DNA of 64,000 nt from Platerodrilus igneus (taxonomy: Eukaryota > Arthropoda > Insecta > Coleoptera > Lycidae): assembly GCA_036346225.1 (NCBI GenBank), contig JARFIW010001458.1, forward strand, positions 372,001 to 436,000. The letters run 5' to 3'. The position numbers and the translations under genes were made by a program. Each line of letters opens with the position of its first letter. Position 1 is the stretch's first letter. This document shows positions 544-27,998 of this stretch, piece after piece. The notes beneath the pieces are model-generated. The model was not told the DNA's origin and ran no database searches. It worked only from the letters and a program-made list of their open reading frames with translations.

Positions 544-546
544 ATA

Positions 547-8870: not shown

Positions 8871-11800
8871 TTAAGTTAAGGTAGGTATATTTACTAAATT
8901 TATTACATTTATATCAGTGCCTGTATACGGCTTTAAATCTTTTATGTGCCAGTTATTTGTCTTTGGCCCATCTGGGTTAGTAAGATTATAAATTAAATTA
9001 GATAGTTTTTTATTAACTGTGCATAAAATATATTTGGGTGCAAGTTTTGCAGTAAAGGCATCAGCGGCACTAGACAATACTTTGTTTGTTCTCCAAACTG
9101 TATCACCTACATTGAAAGTAAATGGTCTGCGTCGTAAATTATAACGACTAGACATTTTTTTATAGGCAAGATGTAATCTATTTTTTACATCTTTGAAGAG
9201 ATTAAAAAGACCTTGTTGGTCGGTAGAATATGCGGTCCTATCTTCAGGCATTATATCTACGTCATCAGAGGGTTTATAAGACGAACTATAAAATTTTCCT
9301 AAAATAGGTACATGTCTACCAAAAATTAAAAAATTTGGCGAAAAACCTGTCACCTCATGTTTTGCTGAATTTATAGCGTACTGAATTTTTGCTATATTTT
9401 CATCCCACATGTTGTGTGTTTCGACATATGATCTAATCGCTGTACCTACAGTTTTATTTATTCGTTCTACAAAATTACATTGTGGGGAATATACTGCAGT
9501 GTACCATATTTTTTCAACATTATAATTGGCAATTAGATTTTTAAAAATGTTTCCAGATAGTTGTGATCCATTATCACATATTATAAATTTAAGTACCCCG
9601 TAGGTTAGAAATACTTTATTTTCGATATGTTTTTCGATATTTGGTGCGGTAGCACTACGTAAAGGAAATAGTAAAGTGAATTTAGAAAACCAGTCACCTA
9701 CAACAAGTAACCACTTGTGTCCTTGTTTTGACCTAGGAAGGGGTCCTATGAGGTCTAAAGCAATTGTGTGAAACGGAAATGTAACATCTTTTTCTTTACC
9801 TGCTAAACCCAATGGTTTCATATTCGATGCTTTTTGTGCTCCACATATTAAACAATTTTTACAATACTTTATGACATCATATTTCATTTTAGGCCAGTAG
9901 TAATTTTCTTGAAGTCTAGCTAATGTTTTATAAAAACCAAAATATCCAGCAGTAGGTGGATCATGACATGTAGAAATTACTTCATTTCTTTGTTTAATAG
10001 GTACTAGGATTTTCCAATTATTTATATTTGCAGTTAACGGTAAATTTGAAGGTAGGAATTTGTATAACAAACTGTTTTCTATTTTCCATTGCGGATAGGT
10101 ATCTGGAGAATTTATAATTTTATTTTTTAAAGATACATAGTAATCATCTATGTTAGCTAAATCTATTTCTAAGACATTTAAATTTACTGTGTTATCTTGT
10201 GTCGATCGACTAAGGGAATCAGGTATTACATGTAACTTGCCTTTACGGTGAATTAAATCAAAGGTATGTTGTCTTAAACGAGTGGCCCATCTCGCCAGTT
10301 TCCCAGAAGGATTTTGGATATTATTGAGCCATAACAGACTGTGATGGTCTGTTATGACTGTGAATTTTGTTCCTTCTATCCATGGACGGAATCTTTCTAT
10401 AGAAAAAATAACAGAGAGACATTCGCGTTCTGTAACAGAATAATTGCGTTCAGAACGTGTAAGAGATCTGCTTGTGTAAGAGATAATGTGATCTTCACCA
10501 TTTAGATTTTGTAATAAGACACCCCCTAAACCAGTATTTGATGCATCAGCTTCTATTGTGAATGGTTGACTGAAATCATGTTGACATAAGATAGGCTCAG
10601 ATACTAGGATTTGTTTTATTTTTAGAAAAGCCGATTCAGCCTCGGAATTCCAAACTATTGGTTGTTTTTTCTTTTTGCCTTTTAAAAGATCATTAATAGG
10701 AGACATAAGGGTAGAAAATGATTTTACAAACCTTCTATACCAACTGACCATACCGACAAAACGTTTAATTTCTGTGGTTGTTTTAGGTCTTGGATAGTTA
10801 GTCATTGCTGAAATTTTTTCTGGATCTGTTCTTATAGAATTAGAACCAACAATGTACCCTAGGAATTTTAATGTTTTTTTAAAAAATTCACATTTTTTGA
10901 GATTTATAGTTAAGTTTGCTTCTTTTAAGCGGTCACGAACTGTTTCTAATAATTTGATGTGTTCAGAAAATGTTGAAGATACGACTATGATATCGTCGAG
11001 ATAACAGAAAATATGGGGTTCCAACTCCGGTCCAAAAATAGTATCAACGAGACGTTGTTGTGTTTGAGCAGAGTTTCTTAAACCGAAAGGAACTGTAACG
11101 AATCTAAATTGACCTCTAGAGATTACACTAAAGGCTGTTTTGTCCTTTGATTCTGTAGTTAAAGGTAGTTGCCAAAAGCTATGTCTTAAATCAAGACTAG
11201 AAATGTATGTAGCACCTCTTAGCAAATTCAAAATTCGGTCTACATTAGGCATGGGGTAGCTATCGTGGGTAGTTATTTCATTTAGAGCTCTTCCATCAAA
11301 ACAAACTCTATAGTCACCAGAAGATTTTTTAACTAGTAAGATAGGAGAACACCAAGGCGAGGTACATTTTTCAATCACACCCAGCTCTAACATTTCATCT
11401 AATTTTTCATTCAATATTTTTGACATATATGGAGACATTGGGTACGGACGCTTTCTGATAGGTTTGTGGTCACCAGTGTCAATATTCATATAAATTTTAT
11501 CAGTGCGACCTAAATTTGTATCAGTGCTTGCAATTAAATTAAAGGAATCTACTATTTGTTTTGCTTTAGGTAATTGTGTATGAAGTAAATCGTCTAACGC
11601 GCAAAGTTTATGTTTATTTAAATTTTTTAAAGGAACTTTTTCCACAGGTATAGGTATATTTGTAGATGTGTGAACATCCCAGGAATTATTTTTAAAATTA
11701 ATAGATAGTTCAAACTTTTTCGCAAAATCTGAACCAAAAATAAATGAGTGCGGTAGTGCAGGAACGACTAAGCAAGTAATGAAACGACATGTGTCACCAA

Positions 11801-12392
11801 CAAAGATAGGCAAGTCTAAAGTACCAGAAATATTTCGTGGAGTACCATCTGCGGTAAGTAATTTATGTGTAGTTAAAGGAAATATGTTTATATTTAAAGT
11901 TTCTATTATAGGTATGCCTAGAGATCCTATAACAGAAATGTTACTTCCAGAATCAAAGAGTGCTGTTATATAAATGTCTAATAATTTTACTTTAAGATAT
12001 GGTCTACTATCTAAATGTTTTGTAATTAAATTATAAGTCTCTATTGAATGTGTTTTTGATTTATAAAAATTTCTAACAGTAGTCAACCATTTTGACCAGT
12101 TATCACTCTTTTGAGAAGTTTTATGTAAGTTAAGGTAATTTTTCTTAGATAAATTTGTAATGTTATGATTTTTGTTTTTATAACATTGATTTATTTTTAA
12201 GGGTAAGGTAGGTTTTGTATAAGGTAAGGTAAGATTTGTATAAGGTAAGGTAGTCATTTGTTTTTTAGAAAAAATAGAGGTAGAGACAATTTTATTTGGT
12301 TTAAGATAATTTTGGGTAGCCATAGATATATCAGTACAGGGTTGGCTATATGTCCTGTACTTTTTTATTCGTTTTTTGAGCAAACAGGACAT
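8871..12392 (-). CDS. pol: Pol polyprotein (protease, RT, RNase H, integrase)
   Basis: An unbroken 1173-codon frame. An aspartic protease motif ALFDSGSNISVIG lies near residue 144, the RT core FCYLDDIIVVS near 463, and RNase H with TIEADASNTGLGGVL near 614. The integrase zinc region has CKNCLICG, and the catalytic triad is IALDLIG (about 878), ICDNGSQ (about 941) and FVERINK (about 976), a D,D,E spacing usual for Ty3/gypsy. The C-terminus has a GPY/F-like segment (KLAPKYILCTVNK) and no chromodomain that I can see. The frame begins upstream of any likely start and overlaps gag by 28 nt in the -1 frame, so expression is expected through frameshifting. All catalytic residues are present, so the enzyme set may be active. 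Confidence 0.93.
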   Translation of the reverse strand: MSCLLKKRIKKYRTYSQPCTDISMATQNYLKPNKIVSTSIFSKKQMTTLPYTNLTLPYTKPTLPLKINQCYKNKNHNITNLSKKNYLNLHKTSQKSDNWSKWLTTVRNFYKSKTHSIETYNLITKHLDSRPYLKVKLLDIYITALFDSGSNISVIGSLGIPIIETLNINIFPLTTHKLLTADGTPRNISGTLDLPIFVGDTCRFITCLVVPALPHSFIFGSDFAKKFELSINFKNNSWDVHTSTNIPIPVEKVPLKNLNKHKLCALDDLLHTQLPKAKQIVDSFNLIASTDTNLGRTDKIYMNIDTGDHKPIRKRPYPMSPYMSKILNEKLDEMLELGVIEKCTSPWCSPILLVKKSSGDYRVCFDGRALNEITTHDSYPMPNVDRILNLLRGATYISSLDLRHSFWQLPLTTESKDKTAFSVISRGQFRFVTVPFGLRNSAQTQQRLVDTIFGPELEPHIFCYLDDIIVVSSTFSEHIKLLETVRDRLKEANLTINLKKCEFFKKTLKFLGYIVGSNSIRTDPEKISAMTNYPRPKTTTEIKRFVGMVSWYRRFVKSFSTLMSPINDLLKGKKKKQPIVWNSEAESAFLKIKQILVSEPILCQHDFSQPFTIEADASNTGLGGVLLQNLNGEDHIISYTSRSLTRSERNYSVTERECLSVIFSIERFRPWIEGTKFTVITDHHSLLWLNNIQNPSGKLARWATRLRQHTFDLIHRKGKLHVIPDSLSRSTQDNTVNLNVLEIDLANIDDYYVSLKNKIINSPDTYPQWKIENSLLYKFLPSNLPLTANINNWKILVPIKQRNEVISTCHDPPTAGYFGFYKTLARLQENYYWPKMKYDVIKYCKNCLICGAQKASNMKPLGLAGKEKDVTFPFHTIALDLIGPLPRSKQGHKWLLVVGDWFSKFTLLFPLRSATAPNIEKHIENKVFLTYGVLKFIICDNGSQLSGNIFKNLIANYNVEKIWYTAVYSPQCNFVERINKTVGTAIRSYVETHNMWDENIAKIQYAINSAKHEVTGFSPNFLIFGRHVPILGKFYSSSYKPSDDVDIMPEDRTAYSTDQQGLFNLFKDVKNRLHLAYKKMSSRYNLRRRPFTFNVGDTVWRTNKVLSSAADAFTAKLAPKYILCTVNKKLSNLIYNLTNPDGPKTNNWHIKDLKPYTGTDINVINLVNIPTLT
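12317..12377 (-). promoter_or_regulatory. -1 frameshift signal: slippery site plus pseudoknot
   Basis: Reading on the minus strand, gag codons TCA AAA AAC contain the canonical heptamer A AAA AAC (12377-12371), 3 nt before the gag stop TAA (12367-12365). After a 9-nt spacer, AGTACAGG (12361-12354) pairs perfectly with CCTGTACT (12340-12333). The loop bases TAGCCA (12348-12343) pair with TGGCTA (12322-12317), giving an H-type pseudoknot with stems of 8 and 6 bp. The frame relation of gag to pol is -1, as required. Together these fit programmed frameshifting for pol expression. Confidence 0.85.
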
Positions 12393-13927
12393 GTGGATAT
12401 TTTTACATTAGGAATGCCACATCTGTAGCAGAAAATTTTTCTTTTAATATTACAATTCGGGTATGTGTGATCTGATTTTAAACAGTTCCAACATTTACTT
12501 GTGGTATGTTTATAGGTATTTGAGAAATAACGTGTATTTTGAGTTGAAGGAAAAGTAGATAAATTTGCATTTATATTTTTATTTATTGTGGAATGTGGTT
12601 GTGTTTGAATATTTGGAATCTTATTATATTGTATGGCATTTAATTGAGACGTAGAATTTTGTATTTTAGGTTTATTATCGTATGTCCAAGTTTTTGGTTT
12701 ACTTTCTTGAAATTTTTGTTTACAAACATTTTGTGGAAAAGAATTTTTGTTTTGTACCAAAACAGAGGTAGTTGGTTTAAAGGAGTTATTATTAGATATA
12801 AGTTGATTTTTTATACGAAAAGATTCTTCTAATCTTTTTGTAGCTGTAACGAGATCTGAGATAGTATTAATTGTAGGTAAAATTACAGAAAGTGGTGTAA
12901 TAAAGTCAGGTAATAAATTTTGTGAAATAATTTGTATTCTTGTAGATTCTAAAGGTAATTTTTGAAATCTGCGGAATAAATTCTGCATTTTCATTATATA
13001 GATAGTCACTGTTTCATTTGTCTTTTGTTTTCTAAGTCTTATTTCATCCCATAAAATAGTTTCTATGTTAGGAGGTAGAAAATCTTGTTTTAAACGAGTT
13101 ATTAAGGAATTCCAATCTGTTACAGAGTGTTTTATTTCCCTATACCAAACGATTGCATCTCCTTCAAACAATTCCATCGCAGACGAAAACAGATCCTGTA
13201 GTGAAACATTCCTGGTTTCAGCTAATTCAGATACTCTTTCTAAAAATTCAAAAACTGTGTCTGGTTTACCATTAAACTTTATTGACCAAGAAGAAATTGG
13301 AGTAGGATTAGATATATAAGTTACTGTTGGTGGATGAACATTTATTGTGGGGATAGTATTTGTTAAAGGAACATTAATTATACCGGCAGTAATTTCATAT
13401 TTTTCTATTTTTTCATGAAGTTCTGCATCTAACAAAAGTGCAGTTGAATAACGTTCATTTTTAAAAGTTGTTAAAACTTCATTATCATTATCAGGAATAG
13501 TTAATCGGTTTATTCTGCCACAAACATGTGCCAGACGAGACATTATTCTTTTATAAAGTGAATCTTTAACATCACCATCAAATTCTTCTATTAAATTCGT
13601 AATTGAATTTATAGTATTAGTTATTTGTTCACTATCTTGATCAAAAGTTATAGTATATTGAGATAGTTCTTTATGTGCTGGTGGTTTATTTAATTCAATT
13701 CGTAATTGACGAGCTAAAAGTTTTCTTTTATCTTCCATAGTTTTCTTTTTTGAACTAATGGACCTTATGTAAAGTTCATACTCAAGCTCCTCTATTAGTA
13801 AATAACCTGCTTTTAAGTGTGCTTCCATTTTTGTTTTATATTTTAAGATAAAATATTTATTTATATTTTTAAGAAAAAAATATTTATGTAAATTAGAATT
13901 CTTTATATATTTAAAGCAATTAAGCAA
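12365..13927 (-). CDS. gag: Gag polyprotein with zinc knuckle
   Basis: An open 520-codon frame starting MLNCFKYIKNSNLHKYFFLK at 13927. A second ATG at 13828 (MEAHLKAGYLLIEELEYELY) is the more gag-like start. The capsid-type region is around residues 220-340 (WSIKFNGKPDTVFEFLERVS; LKQDFLPPNIETILWDEIRL). It is followed by an Asn/Ser/Thr-rich linker and a C-terminal CCHC knuckle, CWNCLKSDHTYPNC (CX2CX4HX4C). A second knuckle, CYRCGIPNVKISTC, has Val where the His should be. The gag stop at 12365 follows a slippery heptamer. Gag packages element RNA and forms the particle. Intact and near-identical LTRs suggest recent activity. Confidence 0.9.
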   Translation of the reverse strand: MLNCFKYIKNSNLHKYFFLKNINKYFILKYKTKMEAHLKAGYLLIEELEYELYIRSISSKKKTMEDKRKLLARQLRIELNKPPAHKELSQYTITFDQDSEQITNTINSITNLIEEFDGDVKDSLYKRIMSRLAHVCGRINRLTIPDNDNEVLTTFKNERYSTALLLDAELHEKIEKYEITAGIINVPLTNTIPTINVHPPTVTYISNPTPISSWSIKFNGKPDTVFEFLERVSELAETRNVSLQDLFSSAMELFEGDAIVWYREIKHSVTDWNSLITRLKQDFLPPNIETILWDEIRLRKQKTNETVTIYIMKMQNLFRRFQKLPLESTRIQIISQNLLPDFITPLSVILPTINTISDLVTATKRLEESFRIKNQLISNNNSFKPTTSVLVQNKNSFPQNVCKQKFQESKPKTWTYDNKPKIQNSTSQLNAIQYNKIPNIQTQPHSTINKNINANLSTFPSTQNTRYFSNTYKHTTSKCWNCLKSDHTYPNCNIKRKIFCYRCGIPNVKISTCPVCSKNE

Positions 13928-14119
13928 GATTTTTAAGGTAAGTTATAAATATAACTAATTCAAGAAAAAGTAATATGAAAGAAAGATTAAGTGGTACATT
14001 TACATAAATGTAACATATTACCAAAAACTAATTCACTTTTATTGTGAAAAATGTGATATACAAACAAAGAAAAGTTTTTCAATAATATAATGCGGGGAGA
14101 GACATTTACAATTTTTAAT

Positions 14120-14428
14120 AAAGAAAAATTTGGTGTCACGTGTAAACGTGTGCAAGAGAAAAAATTAGGAAAGTAAGTTGAGCGTCACGTGTGTACGTAG
14201 GCAGATATAGAAAAAAGAATCGTTGGGCGGCAAAGTGGTGAACGTTAGTTAAGGTAGAAATATGTAAAAAAAATAAGCGTTGGTGCCACGTGCAAGCGTG
14301 CGCAAGAAAAAAGGAGAGATACGTTGAGCGACACGTGCAAGCATGCACAAGAAAAAAAAAATAGGTAGTTGGGCGCCACGTGGAAGCGTGGCCAGGTATA
14401 GAAAAAAAAAGGGATGTTGGGCGCCACG
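14120..14428 (-). repeat. Tandem array of degenerate PBS-like units
   Basis: In the leader of the gypsy element about seven units, spaced roughly 40-55 bp, each contain a version of CACGTG/GCGCC next to GTTGGGCG. On the plus strand examples are TTGGGCGCCACGTG (14417), TTGGGCGCCACGTGGAAGCG (about 14376), TTGAGCGACACGTGCAAGC (about 14323), TTGGTGCCACGTGCAAGCGTG (about 14279) and TTGGTGTCACGTGTAAACGTG (about 14130). Only the first, next to the LTR, is the expected primer binding site. A-runs separate the units. Confidence 0.7.
14411..14426 (-). promoter_or_regulatory. Primer binding site, tRNA-Lys type
   Basis: Two bases after the 5' LTR end the element reads TGGCGCCCAACATCCC. TGGCGCCCAAC matches the PBS class complementary to tRNA-Lys 3' ends used by several gypsy-type elements. 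Confidence 0.75.
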
Positions 14429-16102
14429 TGCACCCTACCCTTTTTCAGGTGTTATAAAAAGGATAGGCGCACGACAGAGCATAAAAAAATTACACTCTGG
14501 CGCAGCTAGCATCGACCGTTGAGGTTGCGTAGGCTGCAAAAGACTTAAAATCTCGAAGGGGAGAAAATTTGTGAATTAATAACTGTAAAATAAACAACTG
14601 TGAGAAACTATGACAAGTTATATAGTGTATTTATTAAATTTTATAGAAATAAAGTTTTGAACAAAAAAACATCATAAATGTTCTGTGAAGTCATATAAAA
14701 TAAAATAGATCAGTAAAGATTATGATACTTGTTTTTATGCAACTAGTAAATGTAGCTATATAAGTTTAAGAGAGTTTTTTAAATATGTGAACGTAACATA
14801 TAAAAAGTCGATAAAATATTTAACGTGAACTAAACGTTCAAAAATACAAAGAAAAGTATCTTGTGCTTTTAAATGCGTAACAAAATTAATAAATGTACTT
14901 GACTACCATAAGTTTCGTGAAACATGTGGCTTACATTTGGACAGTATGCGTCCAGTAAGACTATGTATAATAAGAATTAATATTTGTGAATAGTAGATAA
15001 ATTATCAGTAAGATTAATACATTTTACAAGTGTAAAATAAAGAGAAAATTTAATATTGCATAAATCAGTTCATTTAATTTTGAGTAGATAAATAATACTT
15101 AATTTGTCATACCTGACATGTGCATTGAAAAACATATTTTGTTACCCTGAAATTCTTTGAACGGAACATCTGTAGAAATCCAAATCAAATGTGTAGAAAC
15201 TGCAGGAGTCCCAGGTAACATCAAAAACAAGTGATTAGGTAGAATTCGCTAGCATTCAAACAAGTTGAAAAACATTCCGTGTTTAACTTCATAGATCCAT
15301 ATTAAACCAAATTTTAAGAGAATAATTAACAAAACTAAAATTGTATGTTGAGGTAGCGTAATTTAAAATATAACGTTATTGTCATCTTGTTGAAAAACGA
15401 CAGCAAAGCAAATCTGCATCATTAGGGAACTTTAGATAAATAGTAGGAAGACATGGGGGTAGAGAACGACCCTAAAATATAATACGTGAATTAGTTAACA
15501 CGCAAAACCAAGTGAAAAGGAATTTAAAATACATCTATTAAATTCTTACCATCGGAAAAGTAATCCGGTGGGATTCGTAGTTTATGAAGGAAAGGAAACG
15601 CTAGGCAAGATATCTGTAATAATATTTAAATGATTACACATCTTTTATTTAACAAAATAATACATACTTGATACGACCTCATGGTCAATTCTTATCACCT
15701 TGAATTCAAAATGACCTGTTGTGCACAGAACCAAGTCAAGAAATGAAGCTTTTGTCAGAACGTTTTGACAGGCAACCATCTGTTTCTATTATCAGAGCGG
15801 GGTATTTGGAATTGTCAAAAAAGAAAACTACAGAGCTCTTCTGCAAAGTAGAAGTGTGAAATTAAATACCAAGAATACTGGATTGTAGGCAACTTTACAA
15901 ACAAGTATGAATATTAGAAAACAAACACGGTACTTTATGAAGTACTATAACCTTTCCATATTCTGAGATTATAATACATCTATTAAAAGTAAAAGTGTAT
16001 ATTAAAGTTCAATGGACTTTTTAAAGTAAAATTTGAGGTTTAAAGGGAGAGATAAATCAAGCTGAAACGTGGCATTTACCATAGGTAAAATGACATGTTA
16101 CA
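14429..16102 (-). repeat. 5' LTR of the gypsy element
   Basis: 1674-bp copy. Reading in element direction it starts TGTAACATGTCATTTTACC. It should hold the promoter, but I cannot point to a convincing TATA/Inr pair. It ends next to the primer binding site at 14426-14411. Confidence 0.9.
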
Positions 16103-16106
16103 CTAT
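16103..16106. repeat. Target site duplication CTAT, right copy
   Basis: Matches 6680-6683 and lies within the polymerase reading frame, which marks the exact insertion point of the LTR element. Confidence 0.85.
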
Positions 16107-16961
16107 TAAGACCAGATCTTTGTTTAACACAGTGCAACTGTGAAAATTAGGTTTTGCTATGTAACTACGAGCTCCAAACCGTCTTTCCCATTTGGTAACT
16201 AATTTCACCTCTTTCCATTTCCGTACGTTTTCCATCATCTTTCCATATACCGAATTTATCATATTTTTATAAAAGCATATATCGAAACTATTTTTTGACT
16301 GTTGTCTTAATTTCGTATTCAAATCAATGTATTTTTTTAACCAAGGAGCTTGTTTAAACCGAAGAACCTTATGAATCTTTTTCAGTTCTAAACCGTAGCT
16401 TAAATACATTTTTAAATTCTTGTAGTGAATAATATAGTTGAGTTTTGGATATAAAGTTGTAAGTAATTTCTTTAGGTTTGACTTATTAGAAGGTACTGGT
16501 GGTATCATATGTTCAGGCGCCAACGGTAGGTCACTGTGAATTTCATGTAAAGATACTGGGTAGTGTAAATCGCATTCAAAAATATATCCTACATCAGAAT
16601 CATCGGGAATATTAAGTATGTCTAAACGTACTATATCTGGACTGGTACCATCTAAAAATTCAAATTCTCCATATGGAAGATATTCAGACATTGCAGCCCC
16701 ATATAAATTATTAACATCAAAATACATTAAATATTTAGAATCGAAATTCGGATCATAATCTGCATTCATATATTTGATATTTACTTTGGCATATCTATTC
16801 GAACATTGAGATACGCCACCACGAATTCCCCGTTCTAAAAACATTATTTTTTCAATATCAGTAAGCAACTCGAGTTTAACGTTCGTCGTTTTCAATATTG
16901 CGTCTAAAGCTAAACCAGGAGCCGTAAAGTAGTGAAGTGAATCTAACTTATACGCGAACAT
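16107..16961 (-). pseudogene. polB: Polinton DNA polymerase B, central part
   Basis: The block from 16961 leftwards carries motif A in the form [13 protein letters not shown] and motif B as [14 protein letters not shown], diagnostic of protein-primed family B polymerases of Polintons. It begins [20 protein letters not shown], which corresponds to the middle of the family, so the exonuclease domain and terminal-protein region are missing. Upstream of the ATG the frame meets TGA within four codons, and I find no N-terminal half in 16962-18180. At 16103-16106 the gene meets the LTR element and resumes at 6680 on its far side. Flanks are joined by the 4-bp duplication CTAT. Confidence 0.8.
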
Positions 16962-17382: not shown

Positions 17383-17456
17383 GGTTTTGGTGGCGTAATT
17401 GGTAAACGCACAGTCCCGGCAAGACTGAGATGCAGGTTCAAATCCTGTCCAAGACC
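17383..17456 (+). other. tRNA-like sequence (pseudo-tRNA or SINE head), GGC anticodon position
   Basis: 74 nt with acceptor strands GGTTTTG/CAAGACC (one G-T pair), a D-stem GCGT/ACGC, an anticodon stem CAGTC/GACTG with a 7-base loop CCGGCAA, and a T-arm with the B-box GGTTCAAATCC. The loop places GGC at the anticodon (Ala), but position 33 is C rather than the near-invariant T, and CCA is absent as expected for eukaryotes. The repeat context argues for a SINE-type head rather than a working tRNA gene. Confidence 0.55.
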
Positions 17457-17549
17457 TTATATTTTCCTTCTATCAATTGCTAGGTCGATTTGAATTGATC
17501 ATTTGGGCTTTGCATATAAGTCTATGTTATTAATTCATCTTATTAATTG

Positions 17550-17740: not shown

Positions 17741-17818
17741 AGGCCTTGGACAGGATTTGAACCTGCATCTTAGTTTTGCCGGAACTGTGCGTTTACCAAT
17801 TACGCTACCGATGCCGAT
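17741..17818 (-). other. tRNA-like sequence, inverted copy
   Basis: Inverted relative of 17383-17456. It keeps the B-box GGTTCAAATCC and the A-box-like GTAGCGTAATTGG, but the acceptor ends (CGGCATCG against CCAAGGCC) no longer pair well and the anticodon stem is mismatched. Decayed. Confidence 0.55.
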
Positions 17819-18180: not shown

Positions 18181-18638
18181 GAGCTACCTTACACCACTCT
18201 ACAGCCAGAGAAATTTGAAAATGATTTCTTTAAAATTACAGCAGCTGTCGAAAAATTTATTTTTGTTAAAAGCCCTACTGTTGATGCTATTTCTACAACA
18301 GGCAATATTTACAATGATTATATAGTGGTTAAAATTCCACGAACTTTCGTTTACAGAAATTAATTCTACCAGCTTTTGACGGGCCTTTTGATCAATGGTT
18401 ATTTTCTAGAGACAGGTTTGTGTCAATCATTCACTCAAATACTAGCACTTCTAACGTCATCAAATTTCATTATTTGCACCTGCAATTGGTCAGAATTGCC
18501 GCAGATACAATTAAATCTTTAGAAGTATCTACTTCCAATTATTTAATTGCTCGGAAATTAATTCAAGAACGATTTGAAAACAAACAGTTGTTAGTCATTA
18601 ATCACATCAAAGCAATTTTTAATTTACCATCCGTCACG
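18181..18638 (+). pseudogene. gag: BEL/Pao Gag (DUF1759-type), N-terminal block
   Basis: Reading frames include FENDFFKITAAVEKFIFVKS, then, after a stop near 18360, LPAFDGPFDQWLFSRDRFVS and a block with IKSLEVSTSNYLIARKLIQE and NHIKAIFNLPSVT. This is the DUF1759 capsid-type signature of BEL/Pao Gag (FxGxxxxWxxFxxxF...LxxRFxN). At least one stop and one frameshift. The frame stops at the TIR of the inserted element and the homologous sequence resumes at 26906. Confidence 0.8.
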
Positions 18639-19869
18639 AGTAGGGGATAATTGAAAATCCTGGCACAACATTTCTACCAGCATCCACATTTCCACACCCA
18701 TCTCGACCAAATAGTTTTTCTTCAACTAGCCATTTCATCTTTCGCAATAAATGTACCATGTTTGGTATCAATTAATATTAGATTTTTCTCAGCTACCCGA
18801 ATTTCTAGGAATTTTTTAGATAGCATCATCACCCAGGGAACTACCCTCATTTTAAGATTTTTTGCTGGTAGCGATTTTTGATAATGCTTATAAATTTTTT
18901 AACTATGCGATACATCAAATTAGTCTAGAATTTTACGCAGAATCCGAATCTGTAAATAGATTTACAATAGGACCACCCCTTACCGTTTTACACATATACC
19001 ATCTGCGAGATAAATCTTTCTCCACATTTCCACCCACGAGATTAATGTACCTTGTTTAGTATCAATTAATATTAGATTTTTTACAGCTACCCGAATTTCT
19101 ATGAATTTTTCAGATAGCATCATCGCCCAGGGAGCTACCCTCATTTTTTTTGCTGGTAGCGATTTTTGGCAGTCCGCATAAATTTTTTAACCATGCGATA
19201 CATCAAATTAGTCTAGAATTTTACGCAGAATCCAAATATGCAAACAGATTTTTAATATAACCGCTCCTTACAAAGTTACACTTTAAAGCTCATAAATCTC
19301 TAAATTTTTGCTCATGTATGACAAATGCTTTAACCAACCATTCTTGAAAATCTAAAACCGTGGGAATTTTAGAAATGAACCTTTTATAAGCCATAAGTGT
19401 TTAATATTTAGAACCATTTTCAAATAGTAATGTTCTGTTTTTAGAATAATGTAAAACATTCCAATGTAATGTCTTTTTAATATATAAATGGGAAGGTTGA
19501 GTTTAACGTCATCATCGACCGAATTACATGTGAAATTGGTATATAATTTCTTTCTAGTATTCATCATTGACTACGTATTTAGGGAAATACAAATACTGTA
19601 GTTAAAGCACTAGCAGTCACCGACACTTTCTATTAATTATTTTATTGACTACATGTTTTGAGAAGTACAAAAAATATGCGTCTAATTTGTTTTAAATACA
19701 TGACGAGATCAGTTTTGTAAATTATTTGGAAGTGAAACTCGAATATTCCTACGAGACGATTAATTGTATTTACCAGAATTAAAACTTATCGTCGGCATTA
19801 CTGCTCATTTTGAAAAAATTCCCATTCAACTTTCCATACTATTAACCACATATTTGGTGACGCTGAAAG
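18639..19869. repeat. Outer inverted arm B of the TIR element
   Basis: Inverted match to 26341-26905, but longer. It contains a tandem duplication of about 335 bp (units starting at about 18686 and 19021, each beginning CCACATTTCCAC) and a 0.37-kb piece (about 19270-19640) that the right arm lacks. Confidence 0.8.
18660..19567 (-). pseudogene. Unrecognised ORF in outer arm, decayed
   Basis: On the minus strand an ATG at 19567 opens MMNTRKKLYTNFTCNSVDDD for 71 codons. Beyond its stop, coding-like pieces follow in changing frames: WLVKAFVIHEQKFRDL at about 19300, and AEKNLILIDTKHGTFIAKDE near 18790-18730, close to the end of the element. The last piece has a counterpart in the right arm (26770-26830), where the frame continues to a Gly-rich tail NVDAGGNVVPGFPGIP at the TIR. 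The 335-bp tandem duplication lies inside the gene. No known family recognised. It may be one gene of roughly 190 codons reading towards the element end. Confidence 0.4.
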
Positions 19870-20035
19870 GAATAAAGTTATCGGTTGCACCACTTTAAAC
19901 CTAAGAATAAAAAAAACAAGATAGTTTAATACGTCTATTAATAATTTTTGCTAATGTTGGCGATACAAATATGTAAAACAAACTTTATCAAGAAATATTA
20001 TGTTTTAATAAAATATATACATGTATTGATAACAT

Positions 20036-20341
20036 CTATAAACCGCTGTGGTAACCAGAGTCTGGCGAATCTAAAACAGCCAAATCTCTAAACATTTGCG
20101 CAAGCAATTGCCTCGCAGTCGCATCTTCTAAGTATTGGATGGGGTAACATTTAATAATTTTCAACACTGCCAAGTAATTTAAATTGCTGCAATCATTAGA
20201 CAGAGAAATACTGACACGGTTCTCTTTCTCTAATAACGTTTGAACCCCTTCTTCGTCTGTCGTATTTGCACATACATTTTTTATATCACCTACAAATTTT
20301 TCGTAAAATTCTGGAAAGTTTCTACATCTCAACTCAGCCAT
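20036..20341 (-). CDS. 101-aa protein with C-terminal DSGYHS motif
   Basis: Intact frame from ATG 20341, starting MAELRCRNFPEFYEKFVGDI. It is mostly helical in composition, with NYLAVLKIIKCYPIQYLEDA and ARQLLAQMFRDLAVL. The C-terminus LDSPDSGYHSGL contains DSGYHS, which fits the DSG-phi-x-S phosphodegron recognised by beta-TrCP ubiquitin ligases (compare DSGIHS in beta-catenin). No homologous family recognised. It starts 16 bp after the stop of the preceding minus-strand gene, so the two are packed as in compact viral genomes. An intact frame in an otherwise decaying element suggests that it is recent or was kept. Function unknown. The motif may be chance. Confidence 0.55.
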   Translation of the reverse strand: MAELRCRNFPEFYEKFVGDIKNVCANTTDEEGVQTLLEKENRVSISLSNDCSNLNYLAVLKIIKCYPIQYLEDATARQLLAQMFRDLAVLDSPDSGYHSGL

Positions 20342-20356
20342 TTTAGAACAGATTAA

Positions 20357-20860
20357 TTATCGCAAATTTAATAGCTTGATGCACTCGTACACAGGTAGCA
20401 CAATAACATTCCAATCTTTCGTAATTTCCATATTATATAAATTCTCTTTTTCAAAATTATTCAACAGCCAATTACTTTTATTAAAGGCTGTGCTCAGCTG
20501 CAATTTGAAATCTTGATCCAATTGTATGTTAAAAACGTCGTCTCCAGTAGTCAAACCATTTAATCTGACTTGTTTTGAGTCTTGAGCAAATTGGTGAATT
20601 TTAAATTTCACTTGAAAAGTACACAATTTCTTCTAATCGAAGTATGAGAATGTTATCGTAGAATCTGCACACATACCACTACAGCAAATAACTTGGATGA
20701 CAGGTTGAAGACCACCATATAAATCAAAACCAACTTATATTATATGGTGGTGAGAATTTGGTAAAAATTCGCCTAACCTATAGGTTGTCTTACCAACTAG
20801 TCGATTGATATTTAATTGTGGTACTCGCACATCACTTGTAACGTCAACACAAGAAAAATT
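20357..20860 (-). pseudogene. Unrecognised protein of about 167 codons, two in-frame stops
   Basis: On the minus strand an ATG at about 20860 starts MNFSCVDVTSDVRVPQLNIN. The frame runs without shift to the TAA at 20357 but meets two stops, after NSHHHII and after TITFSYFD. Segments such as LGEFLPNSHHHII, VGFDLYGGLQPVIQVICCSG and WNVIVLPVYECIKLLNLR have an alternating, beta-rich look. No family recognised. The downstream 101-aa gene follows after 16 bp on the same strand, and a plus-strand gene starts 61 bp upstream, so 20861-20921 is a short divergent control region. The consistent frame across both stops argues that this is a real, recently inactivated gene. Confidence 0.5.
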
Positions 20861-20921
20861 CATCTTTAACTTGTAATTTTGATCGAACTCGACGATACTT
20901 TGACGACGAATGCACTAGAAC

Positions 20922-21299
20922 ATGGCTTCTTCACCTTTTATGCCGATGGTCGAGTGTGCGCAGCTCCTTATTATGTTAATTGGCGTTATATGCAGTCTTG
21001 ACTGGAAAAGTGACGCTTATAATTGTTTTATAGTGGGTTTTATCTGTATGTATTTAACCACCAACACCATTTTTAGAATTTTTATAAAAAATATTCTTAG
21101 CAGTATTTTTAATATAACTCCGTCGTGTAAGAAATCAATTATTATTGTGTTTTTCTTCAGGTTCTTAAATACTTCGGAATTTTTTTCAAATCTAACGACC
21201 CCCTACTTATTTACAGATCAAAGAATTTTCTTGGGGAATCGAAATCAATTATCACGTCTTTCAAAATTAGCTCCAACAAATACCCGCATAGTGTTTTAA
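20922..21299 (+). CDS. 125-aa putative membrane protein
   Basis: Open frame from ATG 20922, MASSPFMPMVECAQLLIMLI. Two or three hydrophobic stretches are visible: residues about 12-29 (AQLLIMLIGVICSLDW), about 34-54 (CFIVGFICMYLTTNTIF) and about 70-82 (KSIIIVFFFRFL). The last 45 residues are polar. No family recognised. It is transcribed divergently from the minus-strand gene pair. The start lies only 61 bp from that gene's ATG. Its coding status rests on length, composition and position. A polyprotein or splice variant cannot be excluded. Confidence 0.45.
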   Translation: MASSPFMPMVECAQLLIMLIGVICSLDWKSDAYNCFIVGFICMYLTTNTIFRIFIKNILSSIFNITPSCKKSIIIVFFFRFLNTSEFFSNLTTPYLFTDQRIFLGNRNQLSRLSKLAPTNTRIVF

Positions 21300-22015
21300 T
21301 ATTCAAAAACCTAGCAGCAAAACACCTCTGCATTTTTATTTAGATTCAACTCAATAATAGAGTAAAACTCAAAAATATTTATTAATATCTAGGATTGTTA
21401 AAATTTTCAATTAGTGCATCCACATTCAAATAATTAAACCAAAAGGTATAATATATATTAATTCTACACGGCGGGCTAGAAAGTGATTCGATAATCTATT
21501 TTAAATGTAGTTCAAAATAAGACGTATTTTTTAAATAAATTTAGTGAAATGTATGATCATCAGTCTTGCATTGTTTTGTCAATGACGTCTGACTATTAAT
21601 TGAATAAAAGTACCTTTCACAATTCTAGTTAATATACGGGAATACGCATTCTATAATTTGATTTAAATTGAGTTAATGTAAGGACAAATTATACTTATAC
21701 TTTCTCTGTGCACATAAATACGGGGGAAATGATACCAAAAGTTTATTTTAAGTTTATTTTTGTAAAACGTAAAGTCGTTCAAAGTGTAAGTAATAGTGTT
21801 TAAGAATTTTCCGTCTTTGAAGATTTTGTGTGAGGACTATCGACAAAGAGTAAGTCTTAGTTTGAATTTTGCAAACGTAGAAGAAATTAATATTTACATG
21901 TATAATTCAAAAACTGTTAATCATTAATTTTTACTAGAATGAACATCTTAAGTATTGCATGCAGTGTGTGTGAAAGCGTTTTTACTGGATGTGACGCCAT
22001 AAAAAATATAACGAG
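21300..22015 (+). promoter_or_regulatory. Upstream region with possible promoter and 88-nt intron
   Basis: No ORF of note. A TATA-like ACATAAATA at about 21712 precedes the 253-aa gene. A good 5' splice site (AGA|GTAAGT, intron start 21850) and 3' splice site (TTTTTACTAG|A, intron end 21937) would define an 88-nt intron in the 5' leader. After it a 37-codon upstream ORF (ATG 21939) overlaps the main start in another frame. All predicted by eye. Confidence 0.35.
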
Positions 22016-22777
22016 ATGCACATCAAGATGGTTTATTTCCAAAAGGAACTAAAAATTACAGACAATGAGTGGGAACAAATTAAGGATTTGGAGAAACAGT
22101 CGACCGCAGCGCATAAAGAATGTATAAACGCAGCAGTTCAGTTAGAGCGACCCAAGTTGCTATTTGAAAAACCATACGCCATAGTAAAATCTTCTTCCAA
22201 AATCATAATTGTAAGCCTGAACCCGTTCGACGGTTATAAAATAATTTTCAGATTTGTTGACATCATTTCGCAGACCATACTTGATGTATCCCTCACCGTA
22301 TTTAGGAAGTTTATATCAAATCTTCCATACATTATACGCACTATGGAAGATGGCATGCGAAATCAGATATGCAAATTCGACGACTTGCGTTTTTATTTAA
22401 ATAAGAATTGTTTAGTGAAGATGGTGACATTTGATGAGACTTATATGTTATTTACCAAAAAAACTTTAGAGCACTTTTTAGGGGTATCTCAGATCGTTCT
22501 CAACCATGCTAATAATTTAAAAGAACTAACGGAAAACGGTATTTCTAATATAGATCCGTTTCTGTTAGATGTAGCAATGGAAAGATATAATAGGAATGAT
22601 GTCTTACATGATGTAATTAAAGGCAAATACAGTAATAGTGATATTGGGGTTATATTATACGAATTTGTAAGAACTTACCCAAGATTGTTTAAAACAGTAT
22701 TTGTAGACAAGTTGAGTACATGGAAAAGTACAACAGGTTTCCATTCCACGCATTTCCAAGCGATGTTTAAATTTTAA
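22016..22777 (+). CDS. 253-aa unrecognised protein, intact
   Basis: Open frame from ATG 22016 (MHIKMVYFQKELKITDNEWE). A second in-frame Met at residue 5 is possible. The N-terminal 50 residues are charged and probably helical. The middle contains IVSLNPFDGYKIIFRFVDII and FRKFISNLPYIIRTMEDGMR, and the C-terminal third is helical (FLLDVAMERYNRNDVLHDVI; LYEFVRTYPRLFKTVFVDKL). No signal peptide or membrane segment. It is the longest intact ORF of the TIR element and lies in its single-copy part, just left of inner arm A. I recognise no domain. Composition and lack of lesions over 253 codons in AT-rich DNA make it very unlikely to be random. Confidence 0.7.
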   Translation: MHIKMVYFQKELKITDNEWEQIKDLEKQSTAAHKECINAAVQLERPKLLFEKPYAIVKSSSKIIIVSLNPFDGYKIIFRFVDIISQTILDVSLTVFRKFISNLPYIIRTMEDGMRNQICKFDDLRFYLNKNCLVKMVTFDETYMLFTKKTLEHFLGVSQIVLNHANNLKELTENGISNIDPFLLDVAMERYNRNDVLHDVIKGKYSNSDIGVILYEFVRTYPRLFKTVFVDKLSTWKSTTGFHSTHFQAMFKF

Positions 22778-23216
22778 GCCATAAATTTTACAGAAAATTC
22801 TGTAGCACTATAAATTACACTTTGTTCTCTTATACGTTTCTAAATTGTTGTATTTCAACTACAGATATTAATAACTGTAAATAAAATTATGTTATAGTTT
22901 TAAATAAAACGATTCTGATTAATAATTGTGTAAAACGTTTATAACACTTTTTTAAAAAATACATATCTTTGTTATGATTCTTTTCATAAGAACTTAGAAA
23001 ACCATTTCAGTTATGTGAACATTTGAAAAATTAAACAATGCCAATGTATACTTTATATTTTATAACATAAACAAGCTAATATATACAAAAAAAAATTCTA
23101 AATTCACATCATTCATTTCTTATAATAGTAGTTGAGGTGGTTAAATTTTTACTTTAAAACTTACAATTTAGTATATATTCCATCTGAATATCTGCCAACA
23201 GTTTTATAAACCCAAT

Positions 23217-23414
23217 CTACTCGATTATTTTTATAAAATCATCCAAATGCTCGGGCATTACTGACACAGCAGTACAGTGCTGTATTGCTTCCTCGTATGA
23301 CTGACACAAAAGACATTTTTCTCCTTCTATCGAAAAGCGCTGCCCACATTCTGCTTTTTTTATTCATAGAGCATTGCGAACACTTTGATGAACCTCCCCA
23401 AAGTTTTTATACAT
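23217..23414 (-). pseudogene. 65-codon Cys-containing ORF, left arm copy (one stop)
   Basis: Starts MYKNFGEVHQSVRNAL, meets a TGA, and continues in frame with KKAECGQRFSIEGEKCLLCQ to a TAG at 23217. CLLC plus a later HC could be a small metal site. No family recognised. Confidence 0.5.
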
Positions 23415-23916
23415 ATTTGATTAATAGTCTCTTTAAACTGTACAATCAACAAATAATAACTTCTATGCGAACAGTCCTTTTATATGAGCTACTCTTATTC
23501 GGATATGTACCGATTGTACCGATTTGTGTGCACGCACGAAACAATAGGTAGGGAATGTAACCTATAAACTAATTCATTACATTCCTTAGGAAAATGCCAA
23601 AGGACTTTAAAAATAATTATGACTTTTTAGACCTCTAGTGTCCGGATAAACGCTATTATTTAAGATTGTGTCACTGTTTTCTGGATCAATTTCCTACACA
23701 GTTTTTCCCAAACTTTGCGTATTAGATTGGTGATTATACTTTACTCTATAAACCGACTTGTATATATTTTCGTCTTTATTTTTTAAATTTTAATACCGAA
23801 TAGAATAATCCTGTATGCAGATAAAACTTCGGAAGAAGAAGCTTTAGACAATTTTTACTAATTACAGTTTAAATTTTGTAAACCACATTTCTAAATACAT
23901 ATACACCGTTTTATTC

Positions 23917-24069
23917 TTAAGACTCCAATATTTGCTTATGAGCTTCTTTGAATTCTTGTTGAGAAGTAGTATATCATTTTTTGTGTTCCACAAACTTCTT
24001 TCGTATGACATCCTGCATAAGATGAAGCTTACGTTTATTTGCAATAAAATATTTAATGTCCGTTATCAT
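23917..24069 (-). pseudogene. 50-codon helical ORF, left arm copy (one stop)
   Basis: Starts MITDIKYFIANKRKLHLMQD. The frame is kept to the TAA at 23917, but a TGA replaces the GGA codon of the right copy after VEHKK. Helical, basic, no family recognised. Confidence 0.55.
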
Positions 24070-24360
24070 AAAACTTCGGATAGGGGCTAACCATTGAACG
24101 TCTTTTTGGGCATGGGTAGGGGTGCGCACGTGCAGGGGTACGCATGGGCGGGGTGCGCACGCGCAGGGGTGCGCATGTGCAGGGGCGTGCCTAGGCGTAC
24201 ACCAGGATGCGTGAAGAACTGCGTTGGATCGTTAATAATCAAATTTTAAAGACGCATTCGATAAAAATAATACAATCACGTTTTACAAAACAACTAATTT
24301 CTAGGGCGGGTAAATTTGTCTAAATATTAAGATGAGAAGATTAAAGCGTTGACAGCATCG

Positions 24361-24883
24361 GCCTTTAGATACCAACATCCTTTTGCTAGACCATGTTTGC
24401 CATGTTGGACCCAGAATCGCCATCTGAATCTTCTTTAGCATCCTCTGTCCTAATAACGTCTTTACAATTACTAAACTCGCACCCACAATTTTTACTCTTA
24501 ACCAAGAACTCCTCACATCGGTTTATAATTATTCATATTTATTTCTAAATAGAACACTTTTTCCAAAGAGCAACCGGACCCACGTGATTCAAATTCCTCT
24601 GATTTTGTTCTCATAGTTTCGCTTAGAACGCGTAGATATTTTCCAGATTACTAGAAGATGTCAACAAAAGAAAATCCAAAAACCATCCTTAAAGCTTTCT
24701 ATTACAGACAATTTTTACTAATACAGTATAAATTTTCTAAACTACATTTCTAAATACTTCTTTCGTACGGTATCCTGCATAAGATGAAGCTTGCGTTTAT
24801 TTGCAATAAAATCTTTAACGCTCGTCATCATGAGGGAAAAATTGATAGGTTAGGTCAGCGCCGCGACGCTGACTTAACCTATC
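24361..24883. other. Spacer of the palindrome with a hairpin
   Basis: Spacer between A and A'. It holds a truncated repeat copy (24690-24835) and, at 24847-24886, a near-perfect hairpin: GATAGGTTAGGTCAGCG, a short CCGCGA loop, and CGCTGACTTAACCTATC (one mismatch). 24361-24689 shows nothing recognised. Confidence 0.6.
24690..24835 (-). pseudogene. Third, truncated copy of the helical ORF in the spacer
   Basis: In the spacer between A and A', the minus strand reads MMTSVKDFIANKRKLHLMQD and then jumps to a downstream part of the repeat (internal deletion after RKKY). It has the same orientation as the left-arm copy. Confidence 0.6.
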
Positions 24884-25176
24884 GATGCTGTCGACGCTTT
24901 AATTTTCTCATCTTAATATCTAAACAAATTGACCCGCTCTGGAAAGTAGTTGTTTTGTAGAACGTGATTGTATTATTTTTATCGAATGCGTCTTTAAAAT
25001 TTGATTAATAACGATCCAACGCAATTCCTCACGCATCCCGATGTACGCTTAGGCACACCCCTACCCATGCGTACCTCTGCGCGTGCGCATTCTGCCCATG
25101 CGCACCCCTGCACGTGCACACCCTTACCCATGCACAAAAAGACCTTCAATCGTTAGCCCCTATCCGAAGTTTCATA

Positions 25177-25326
25177 ATGACGGACATTAAAGATTTTATT
25201 GCAAATAAACGTAAGCTTCATCTTATGCAGGATGTCATACGAAAGAAGTTTGTGGAATACAAAAAAGGATATACTACTTCTCAACAAGAATTCAAAGAAG
25301 CTCATAAACAAATATTGGAGTCTTAA
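25177..25326 (+). CDS. 49-aa helical ORF, right arm copy (intact)
   Basis: Open frame from ATG 25177, MTDIKDFIANKRKLHLMQDV, ending FKEAHKQILES. It is rich in Lys/Glu/Gln and predicted helical by composition. The same ORF is present in the left arm with a single stop and in the central spacer as a truncated third copy. The reading frame is better kept than the surrounding sequence, which supports coding. Function unknown. Confidence 0.55.
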   Translation: MTDIKDFIANKRKLHLMQDVIRKKFVEYKKGYTTSQQEFKEAHKQILES

Positions 25327-25828
25327 GCATAAAACTGTGTATATGTATTTAGAAATGTGGTTTACAAAATTTAAACTGTAATTAGTAAAAATTGTCTGAG
25401 ACTTCTTCTTCCGAAGTTTTATTTGCATACAGGATCATTCTATTCGGTATTAAAATTTAAAAATAAAGACGAAAATATATACAAGTCGGTTTATAGAGTA
25501 AAGTATAATCACCAATCTAATACGCAAAGTTTGGGAAAAACTGTGTAGGAAATTGATCCAGAAAACAGTGACACAATATTAAATAATAGCGTTTATCCGG
25601 ACACTAGAGGTCTAAAAAGTTATAATTATTTTTAAAGTCCTTTGGCATTTTCCTAAGGAATGTAATGAATTAGTTTATAGGTTACATTCCCTACCTGTTG
25701 TTTCGTGCGTGCACACAAATCGGGTACAATCGGTACATATCCGAATAAGAGTAGCTCATATAAAAGGACTGTTCGCATAGAAGTTATTATTTGTTGATTG
25801 TACAGTTTAAAGAGACTATTAATCAAAT

Positions 25829-26027
25829 ATGTATAAAAACTTTGGGGAGGTTCATCAAAGTGTTCGCAATGCTCTACGAATAAAAAAAAGCAGAATGTGG
25901 GCAGCGCTTTTCGATAGAAGGAGAAAAATGTCTTTTGTGTCAGTCATACGAGGAAGCAATACAGCACTGTACTGCTGTGTCAGTAATGCCCGAGCATTTG
26001 GATGATTTTATAAAAATAATCGAGTAG
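25829..26027 (+). pseudogene. 65-codon Cys-containing ORF, right arm copy (frameshift)
   Basis: Counterpart of 23414-23217. Here the stop codon of the left copy reads CGA, but one extra A in the following A-run shifts the frame. The two copies carry different lesions, so the common ancestor was probably open. C-terminus SVMPEHLDDFIKIIE is the same in both. Confidence 0.5.
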
Positions 26028-26340
26028 ATTGGGTTTATAAAACTGTTGGCAGATATTCAGATGGAATATATACTAAATTGTAAGTTTTAAAGTAAAAATT
26101 TAACCACCTCAACTACTATCATAAGAAATGAATGATGTGAATTTAGAATTTTTTTTTGTATATATTAGCTTGTTTATGTTATAAAATATAAAGCATACAT
26201 TGGCATTGTTTAATTTTTCAAATGTTCACATAACTGAAATGGTTATCTTAGTTCTTATGAAAAGAATCATAACAAAGATATGTATTTTTTAAAAAAGTGT
26301 TATAAACGTTTTACACAATTATTAATCAGAATCTGCATTT

Positions 26341-26905
26341 CTTTTAGCGTCACCAAATATGTGGTTAATAGTATGGAAAGTTGAATGAGAATTTTTTCAA
26401 AATGAGCAGTAATGCCGACGACAACTTTTAATTCTGGTAAGTACAATTAATCGTCTCGTAGGAATATTCGAGTTTCACTTCCAAATAATTTACAAAACTG
26501 ACTCGTCATGAATTTAAAACAAATTAGACACATATTTCTTGTATTTCTCAAAACATGTAGTCAATAAAAGCGGCCCTATTTAAAATCTGTTTACAGATTC
26601 GGATTCTGCGTAAAATTCTAGACTAATTTGATGTATCGCATGGTTAAAAAATTTATAAGCATTGTTAAAAATCGCTACCAGCGAAAAATCTTAAAATGAG
26701 GGTAGCTTCTTGGGAGATGATGCTATCTAAAAACTCCTAGTAATTCAGGTAGCTGAGAAAAATTTAATATTAATTGATACCAAACAAGGTACATTTATCG
26801 CTAAAGATGAAATGGCTAGTCGAAGAAAACTATTTTGTCTAGATGTGTGTGGAAATGTGGATGCTGGTGGAAATGTGGTTCCAGGATTCCCAGGTATCCC
26901 CTACT
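26341..26905. repeat. Outer inverted arm B'
   Basis: Inverted match to parts of 18639-19869. It lacks one unit of the left tandem duplication and the 0.37-kb segment around 19270-19640. It ends CCCCTACT at the BEL junction. Confidence 0.8.
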
Positions 26906-27998
26906 GTCACAAAAGTCTCATGAAGGCTTGCGACTACTTTTGGGCGGCACACAAAATCACCTATGCGTTTTAAGTGTTTTCTAACGTCTCACTAAACATT
27001 GAAATCATTTGATTATATACTTAATTACTAGCAAATTTGATAACGCTTCGTGCCGCGCTTGGGAAGCGGAAAACAAAACCGATGACTTACCTGAGTTACA
27101 AAACTTAACCGATTTCTTAAGGAAAGATGTCGATGTCTCGAATCTTTACACGTCAACAGCCGATTGCATCACAACGTATAAACAAGACTTCTAAGTCCTT
27201 TGTTACAGCTTCTACAGAAATATGCTTCTTATGTAGTAACAATCACGCAATTTACTATTGCACATAATTTACAAAACTCGATGGCTTGAACAAATTAAAT
27301 ACGCGTACACGCTTACAGCTATGCATCAACTCTTTAAGCGCTGGTCATTTAACAAAAAATTGCAAATCTACAGGGTGTCGTAAATGTGGAAAATTCCGCC
27401 ACACCCTTTTATGTTTTAAAAGTAATTTTACAAATAAGCAGTCTACTTCTGCACAAAATACTTCACAGAACAACGCTACTACTGCTGATAATCAGCAACC
27501 TGTTCCTACAACATCAGCTGCACCTTTTAGGGGACTGTTCATACTTCTGCGAAGTTACAAGTTTTACTTTCCACTGCAGTTGTCATAGTTGTTGACGTTT
27601 TTGGCAAACCACACGACTGCAGTGTTCTTTTAGACAACGCAAGCCAATCGAACTTTATATCTCAACGTCTTTGTGACATCTTACAATTGCCAAAACACAA
27701 ACACTTCCATTTTTGGAATTAATTAATTGAATCATAATGTTAGTCACATTGTCACAGTCACAATTAAATCCAATGCAAACAATTTTGCAACAACACTTAG
27801 TTGTTTAGTTTTGCCAAACATAACTAGTCACTTGCCAAATACATACATTTGCCATACGTCATTAGATATACCCAAATATATTAAACTTGCTGATTCAAAT
27901 TTTGGTCACCCAGCTCCGGTAGATTTGCTGATTGGTGCAGACACTTTTTGGGATTTATTAGGTATTGGACAAATTAAACTTGGCAAAAATGGCCCCTG
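26906..27998 (+). pseudogene. BEL/Pao Gag C-terminal zinc region and protease
   Basis: After the insertion the homology resumes with SHEGLRLLLGGTQNHLCVLS, then LIIYLITSKFDNASCRAWEA (about 27009-27194). A zinc region with FLCSNNHAIYYC and CINSLSAGHLTKNCKSTGC follows at 27220-27420. The protease part carries DCSVLLDNASQSNFIS, with the catalytic Asp kept but the usual LLDSGSQ altered. The 27727-28002 frame ends APVDLLIGADTFWDLLGIGQ, the C-terminal protease segment (DUF1758-like). Several stops and frameshifts. It joins the gypsy fragment in the same region at about 27998. Confidence 0.75.

What the first reader, a model, noticed from the sequence alone, without database searches (positions are those of the whole stretch)
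18639..26905. Undescribed 8.27-kb TIR element with compact unknown genes
Seen: terminal inverted repeats starting AGTAGGGGAT, flanks GTCACG/GTCACA, exact placement within a BEL gag reading frame, and at least six ORFs on both strands that I cannot place (253, 125, 101, about 167, 65 and 49 codons). Gene packing (16-bp and 61-bp gaps) looks viral rather than like a cut-and-paste transposon. Known: 6-bp duplications are typical of Maverick/Polintons. Inferred: either a degenerate or satellite Polinton-like element, or an integrated DNA virus of another lineage. No polymerase, integrase or capsid gene is recognised in it.
Basis: partly seen in the sequence, partly recalled or inferred. Interest (0 to 1): 0.85.

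Follow-up and report, generated by a model that had tools for sequence, protein, structure and literature searches.

The report
Core-less Polinton-like element with orphan genes
An 8.3-kb piece of mobile DNA sits inside an old retrotransposon gene, has the ends and target duplication of a virus-like Polinton/Maverick transposon but none of its recognisable enzymes, and carries a few unknown genes plus a large internal mirror repeat, so it was most likely moved by a relative's machinery.

Summary
The element is real and its limits are right. 18639-26905 interrupts a BEL-type gag (DUF1759) that reads on across the join. It has imperfect ~570-bp terminal inverted repeats (91% outer, 94% inner) and a 6-bp flank repeat, GTCACG/GTCACA (5 of 6). 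Ends AGTAGG...CCTACT, TIR size and 6-bp duplication fit Maverick/Polinton elements. A degenerate adintovirus/Polinton (double jelly-roll capsid, PolB) lies in the same window. Pfam scans of the 31 open segments of 55 or more residues recognise no polymerase, integrase, protease, ATPase, capsid or transposase. The 253-aa ORF is longer than any in 200 simulated sequences; neither it nor the 101-aa ORF has a relative in the collections searched. Corrections: the '167-codon' gene is broken by two in-frame stops, the 125-aa ORF looks non-coding, and a 1.45-kb internal inverted repeat abutting the right TIR was missed. Best reading: a non-autonomous (deletion/snap-back or satellite) Polinton derivative, replicated and integrated in trans. 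The decisive test, other copies and an autonomous partner with the same TIR, could not be run: the genome search was unanswered in 20 of 20 attempts.

The parts
18633..18638 (.). left target-site duplication GTCACG
26906..26911 (.). right target-site duplication GTCACA (5 of 6)
18639..18974 (+). left TIR, outer part; 304 of 334 aligned columns identical to 26905-26572
18975..19639 (+). stretch present only in the left TIR; includes most of a diverged tandem copy (19041-19271) of 18747-18983, 205 of 231 columns identical
19640..19873 (+). left TIR, inner part (226 of 240 columns identical in the slightly extended alignment 19640-19880 against 26569-26330)
26337..26905 (-). right TIR, about 569 bp
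20036..20341 (-). 101-aa ORF, coding-like composition, predicted helical at low confidence (mean pLDDT 51.6), no relatives found
20357..20914 (-). remnant of the '167-codon' gene: three same-frame pieces separated by two stops
20922..21299 (+). 125-aa ORF, hydrophobic; composition not coding-like, length reached in 2 of 200 simulated sequences
22016..22777 (+). 253-aa orphan ORF, coding-like composition, no relatives found
22911..24360 (+). arm A of the internal inverted repeat
24361..24882 (.). spacer between the arms, with a third, partial copy of the 49-codon ORF (24742-24831, minus)
24841..24886 (+). perfect 20-bp hairpin at the inner edge of arm A'
24883..26333 (-). arm A' of the internal inverted repeat, ending within a few bases of the right TIR
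25177..25326 (+). 49-codon ORF; truncated copy in arm A (ends at 23974, minus) and partial copy in the spacer
18420..18638 (+). gag (DUF1759) of the interrupted BEL-type element, left part; continues from 26912 with frameshifts

Best explanation
A non-autonomous Polinton/Maverick-type element. It keeps the cis-acting ends and has lost, or never had, the core genes. Most likely mechanism: a related Polinton/adintovirus in the same host supplies a protein-primed PolB, which recognises the AGTAGG ends and copies the linear DNA, and an RVE integrase, which inserts it with a 6-bp stagger; packaging into Polinton capsids is possible. The interior holds orphan genes of the accessory type and a large inverted repeat, plausibly made by template switching (snap-back) during linear replication followed by loss of one copy of the unique segment, and later partly evened out by gene conversion. 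Shown here: the ends, the 6-bp duplication (5 of 6), insertion into gag, no recognisable enzyme in the segments scanned, the inverted repeat and its identity gradient. Inferred: help in trans, template switching, conversion, any packaging.
For: 6-bp duplication with gag reading on across the join. Published vertebrate Maverick features match: 6-bp TSDs, TIRs of 46-1,447 bp (mean 402) and the common end motif (AGT)2//(ACT)2, here AGTAGG, 5 of 6 at both ends (passages of PMC8097293); 6 bp is given as Polinton's characteristic TSD length (passages of PMC10045372). A Polinton/adintovirus with double jelly-roll capsid (E 7e-43) and PolB (E 4e-12) lies at 1-16961 of the window, so helper-type elements existed in this genome. 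Most vertebrate Mavericks carry accessory ORFs flanking the core modules, so ends plus accessory genes is what core deletion would leave. Arm A' ends within a few bases of the right TIR, as one rearrangement would leave it; the arms differ at 12 of 900 distal columns but 42 of 552 near the centre (Fisher p 1.6e-9), as partial conversion would.
Against: No second copy and no autonomous element with the same TIR was seen; the genome could not be searched. No similarity above chance between the element's open segments and the rest of the window, Polinton included (128 segments of 30 or more residues, best E 0.017 for a single query). The TSD has one mismatch and the end motif is 5 of 6. Size 8.3 kb lies below the 12.7-24.6 kb of intact vertebrate Mavericks. 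The end-motif comparison is with vertebrate elements, while the host here is unknown (an invertebrate is my guess). The TIR difference (about 6-9%) and the distal arm difference (about 1%) do not fit one common age without conversion or a later duplication.
Confidence: 0.6

Rival explanations
1. An integrated DNA virus, or one segment of a segmented DNA virus with inverted terminal repeats, of another lineage (for example bidna-like), with its own unknown replication genes.
For: Orphan ORFs; the segmented bidna-like Vesanto virus has further segments of 3.3-5.8 kb with inverted terminal repeats (passages of PMC8363768).
Against: No polymerase, helicase or structural gene recognised in the segments scanned; no relatives of four queries from the element in IMG/VR; a 6-bp duplication at exact TIR ends points to a DDE integrase (inference).
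Confidence: 0.15
2. A non-autonomous cut-and-paste transposon with long, internally repeated TIRs (Foldback/Galileo type, P superfamily, or hAT).
For: Tandem duplication inside the left TIR and large inverted repeats resemble Galileo, which has long internally repetitive TIRs (start of the abstract of PMC3573991).
Against: Galileo copies are flanked by 7-bp sequences (passages of PMC3573991); here 6 bp, and boundary shifts of 1-3 bases destroy the match. hAT's 8-bp duplication and end sequences (recalled) do not fit. No transposase match in the segments scanned.
Confidence: 0.12
3. A Polinton that captured host genes as cargo in place of its core genes; the orphan ORFs are lineage-specific host genes.
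For: The ORFs lack viral relatives in the collections searched.
Against: Nothing resembles a family in Pfam; no direct evidence against, because the host genome could not be searched.
Confidence: 0.1

Closest known systems
Maverick/Polinton (adintovirus) elements
   Same: 6-bp target duplication, TIRs of several hundred bp, AGT...ACT ends; a degenerate one is in the same window
   Different: No PolB, integrase, ATPase, protease or capsid recognised; 8.3 kb instead of 12.7-24.6 kb; large internal inverted repeat
Tlr elements of Tetrahymena
   Same: Once suggested to be a non-autonomous derivative of Polintons (passage of PMC4028283)
   Different: That paper reports capsid proteins in Tlr (start of abstract) and places the Tlr capsid as an outgroup to Polintons; no capsid is recognised here
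Galileo/Foldback (P superfamily)
   Same: Long, internally repeated TIRs and frequent rearrangement
   Different: 7-bp flanks; no transposase match here
Vesanto virus / bidnaviruses
   Same: Short linear segments with inverted terminal repeats and few genes
   Different: No PolB-like gene recognised here; inserted with a 6-bp duplication

Membership tests
Maverick/Polinton | 6-bp target-site duplication | tested here: met
   GTCACG/GTCACA, one mismatch, in a gag frame that continues across the site
Maverick/Polinton | TIRs of 46-1,447 bp | tested here: met
   about 570 bp, 91% and 94% identical (range)
Maverick/Polinton | terminal motif (AGT)2//(ACT)2 or (AG)3//(CT)3 | tested here: inconclusive
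   AGTAGG...CCTACT, 5 of 6 to the first motif at both ends
Maverick/Polinton | protein-primed PolB and RVE integrase | tested here: not met
   Pfam scans of the 31 stop-to-stop segments of 55 or more residues (three of them from their ATG on): no match above a curated cut-off. Shorter segments were mostly not scanned
Maverick/Polinton | double jelly-roll capsid, packaging ATPase, protease | tested here: not met
   same scans; the method does detect the capsid and PolB of the neighbouring Polinton
Maverick/Polinton | size of intact elements, 12.7-24.6 kb in vertebrates | tested here: not met
   8,267 bp
Maverick/Polinton (non-autonomous derivative) | TIR shared with an autonomous Polinton of the same genome | not testable with these tools
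   The genome search unanswered in 20 of 20 attempts; no end of the neighbouring Polinton was recognised in the window
Galileo/P superfamily | 7-bp target duplication and P-type transposase | tested here: not met
   Pfam scans as above
Bidnavirus-like | PolB gene | tested here: not met
   Pfam scans as above

The most novel reading that the evidence does not exclude
A true satellite of animal Polintons/adintoviruses: a compact element with its own gene set (253-aa, 101-aa and others) that parasitises Polinton polymerase, integrase and perhaps capsid through mimicked ends, as virophages and phage satellites exploit their helpers.
Probability: 0.15. Interest if true: 0.75.

Novelty: new variant of a known kind. 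Interest (0 to 1): 0.4.

Why it matters
The titles and abstract starts listed by ten searches of the held paper library (several lists were cut, most papers were not opened) name no core-less Polinton, and the phrases 'non-autonomous Polinton' and 'non-autonomous Maverick' occur in 0 held papers; subscription papers and repeat databases were not searched. If copies with the same ends exist, the element would show that Polinton machinery acts in trans, give a minimal cis-acting set (TIRs), and open a test of satellite parasitism of virus-like transposons in animals.

Tried and rejected
PC4-like fold for the 253-aa protein, suspected by eye: Pfam gave no PC4 match with max_evalue 10, and hhalign against one human PC4 domain gave probability 1.1% outside the suspected part: dropped.

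Weak PDB hits of the 253-aa ORF to botulinum neurotoxin A chains (E 0.02-0.1, query residues 70-185): residues 39-121 searched alone give no hit at E up to 10 (this covers only part of 70-185), and Pfam has none; treated as chance. phrog_21262 match of the 89-aa piece (E 3e-4, unknown function, 36 residues): no relative of the 91-residue piece followed in the large protein set, whose search needs shared 5-residue words, or in IMG/VR; treated as chance, not disproved. DUF3220 match of 23977-24231 minus (E 0.009, 16.7 bits, below the cut-off of 25): not credited.

The one IMG/VR hit to the end pattern (L001) has no further similarity to the element (best E 0.22): chance. A 22-base TIR core has 0 exact matches in the prokaryote genomes and in IMG/VR. 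The Polinton PolB and capsid pieces found no relatives in IMG/VR. Structure predictions from single sequences were too poor to search (253 aa: mean pLDDT 35.3; 101 aa: 51.6), so no fold search was run. A DSGxxS-like motif (recalled as a beta-TrCP degron) near the end of the 101-aa protein was seen by eye only.

Neutral-decay simulation (rates from the TIRs, the inner-TIR counts entered by hand): the 253-aa ORF stays open in 5.5% of 4,000 runs at the TIR-derived rate and 22% at half of it, the 101-aa ORF in 31% and 55%. Suggestive of constraint or of an overestimated age, not proof; the ORFs were picked because they are open.

Rfam has no match in 18600-26950.
Full report
Observation. Both TIR ends, AGTAGGGGAT, lie exactly at 18639 and 26905. 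The right TIR is about 569 bp (26337-26905). The left one matches it in two parts, 18639-18974 (304 of 334 aligned columns) and 19640-19873 (226 of 240 columns in a slightly extended alignment), parted by a 665-bp stretch found only on the left, part of which is a tandem copy of the TIR itself (205 of 231 columns). Flanks GTCACG and GTCACA agree at 5 of 6 positions; displaced boundaries agree at 2 of 6 or fewer.

Insertion site. The left flank matches DUF1759 (a gag-region family of BEL/Pao elements; that label is recalled) up to profile position 88, ending at base 18638 (48.1 bits). With the flanks joined and X at frame breaks, one alignment runs to position 145 (55.4 bits). The element therefore interrupts a gag gene that was once continuous; the right part of the gag has frameshifts.

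Interior. From left to right: TIR; a ~3-kb unique part with a 101-aa ORF (minus), a broken ORF in three same-frame pieces (minus), a 125-aa ORF (plus) and a 253-aa ORF (plus); then an inverted repeat, arm A 22911-24360, a 522-bp spacer, arm A' 24883-26333, and the right TIR within a few bases. The 253-aa ORF is longer than the longest ORF in 200 of 200 simulated sequences (maximum 140); 125 aa or more occurs in 2 of 200. Composition by codon position supports coding for the 253-aa, 101-aa and 89-aa ORFs (first position richer in G+C than second, as in the neighbouring PolB and capsid) and not for the 125-aa one. A 49-codon ORF occurs in three versions, one full and two shortened. A perfect 20-bp hairpin lies at the inner edge of arm A' (z -6.55, 0 of 200 shuffles fold as well).

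The inverted repeat. The arms agree at 1398 of 1449 ungapped columns. Counting gap columns as differences, the distal 900 columns differ at 12 and the proximal 552 at 42 (p 1.6e-9; without CpG contexts 11 and 34). The TIRs differ by about 6-9%. One age for all repeats does not fit; partial gene conversion between the arms, or arms younger than the TIRs, would explain it. The closeness of A' to the TIR suggests one rearrangement joining the TIR's inner edge to an inverted copy of A. This is inference.

Relatives. No match above a curated cut-off in Pfam for the 31 stop-to-stop segments of 55 or more residues listed; shorter segments were mostly not scanned. None in NCBIfam for the four given; none credited in PHROGs for six or in the PDB for three queries. 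No homologue of the 253-aa, 101-aa and 91-aa queries in the large protein set. No relative of the 253-aa, 101-aa, 91-aa and 125-aa queries in IMG/VR, nor of the 253-aa query in prokaryote genomes. These collections are, as far as their descriptions tell, poor in animal genomes, so the absence says little about the host's own repeats.

Context. Window 1-16961 holds a degenerate Polinton/adintovirus: double jelly-roll capsid pieces (E 2e-14 and 7e-43), PolB (E 4e-12), and a presumed PolB end at 6104-6442 that has no Pfam match (judged by eye). A gypsy-type LTR element (type judged by eye) with 99.4% identical LTRs sits between its parts. Helpers of the required kind therefore existed in this genome, but no end of that Polinton was recognised in the window, so its TIR cannot be compared.

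Comparison. Passages of PMC8097293 give, for vertebrate Mavericks, 6-bp TSDs, TIRs of 46-1,447 bp, the common end motif (AGT)2//(ACT)2 tied to jumping-back in protein-primed replication, and accessory ORFs flanking the core in most elements. The element meets the first two (the TSD with one mismatch), nearly meets the third, and its genes could be of the fourth kind. It fails the core-gene and size criteria, so it is not an autonomous Polinton; 'works like a non-autonomous Polinton' stands. Galileo copies have 7-bp flanks and do not fit.

Verdict. A real mobile element, most likely a core-less Polinton derivative with orphan genes and a snap-back-like interior (0.6). Whether it is a decayed one-off or a satellite family depends on copies in the host genome, which could not be searched (20 of 20 attempts unanswered).

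Noticed in passing
window 1-6660 and 16098-16961: Degenerate Polinton/adintovirus with double jelly-roll capsid and PolB fragments, and by eye only a PLA2-like minor capsid gene and an ATPase.
   Followed up: partly
window 6684-16104: Young LTR element, gypsy-type by eye (LTRs 6684-8355 and 14429-16104, 99.4% identical over 1676 columns; ORFs of 520 and 1173 aa open), inserted within the Polinton's PolB region; by eye TG...CA ends and a 4-bp CTAT duplication.
   Followed up: partly
window 17383-17457 (+) and 17741-17815 (-): Inverted pair of tRNA-Ala-like sequences (ARAGORN) around a TA microsatellite, probably a tRNA-derived repeat; by eye a third partial copy near 18150.
   Followed up: no
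window 37616-38116 (-): Baculovirus F-like envelope fragment (Pfam Baculo_F, E 5e-14), probably from an env-bearing retroelement.
   Followed up: no
window 24110-24185 and 25056-25133: GC-rich tandem repeats (16-bp units, on the left also read as 31-bp units) inside both arms of the inverted repeat, in an element of 32% GC.
   Followed up: no
window 25890-26024 (+): 45-aa piece with a CxxC motif, a possible remnant of a small zinc-ribbon protein (Pfam zinc_ribbon_6, E 0.05, not significant); by eye the upstream frame is broken in both arms.
   Followed up: partly
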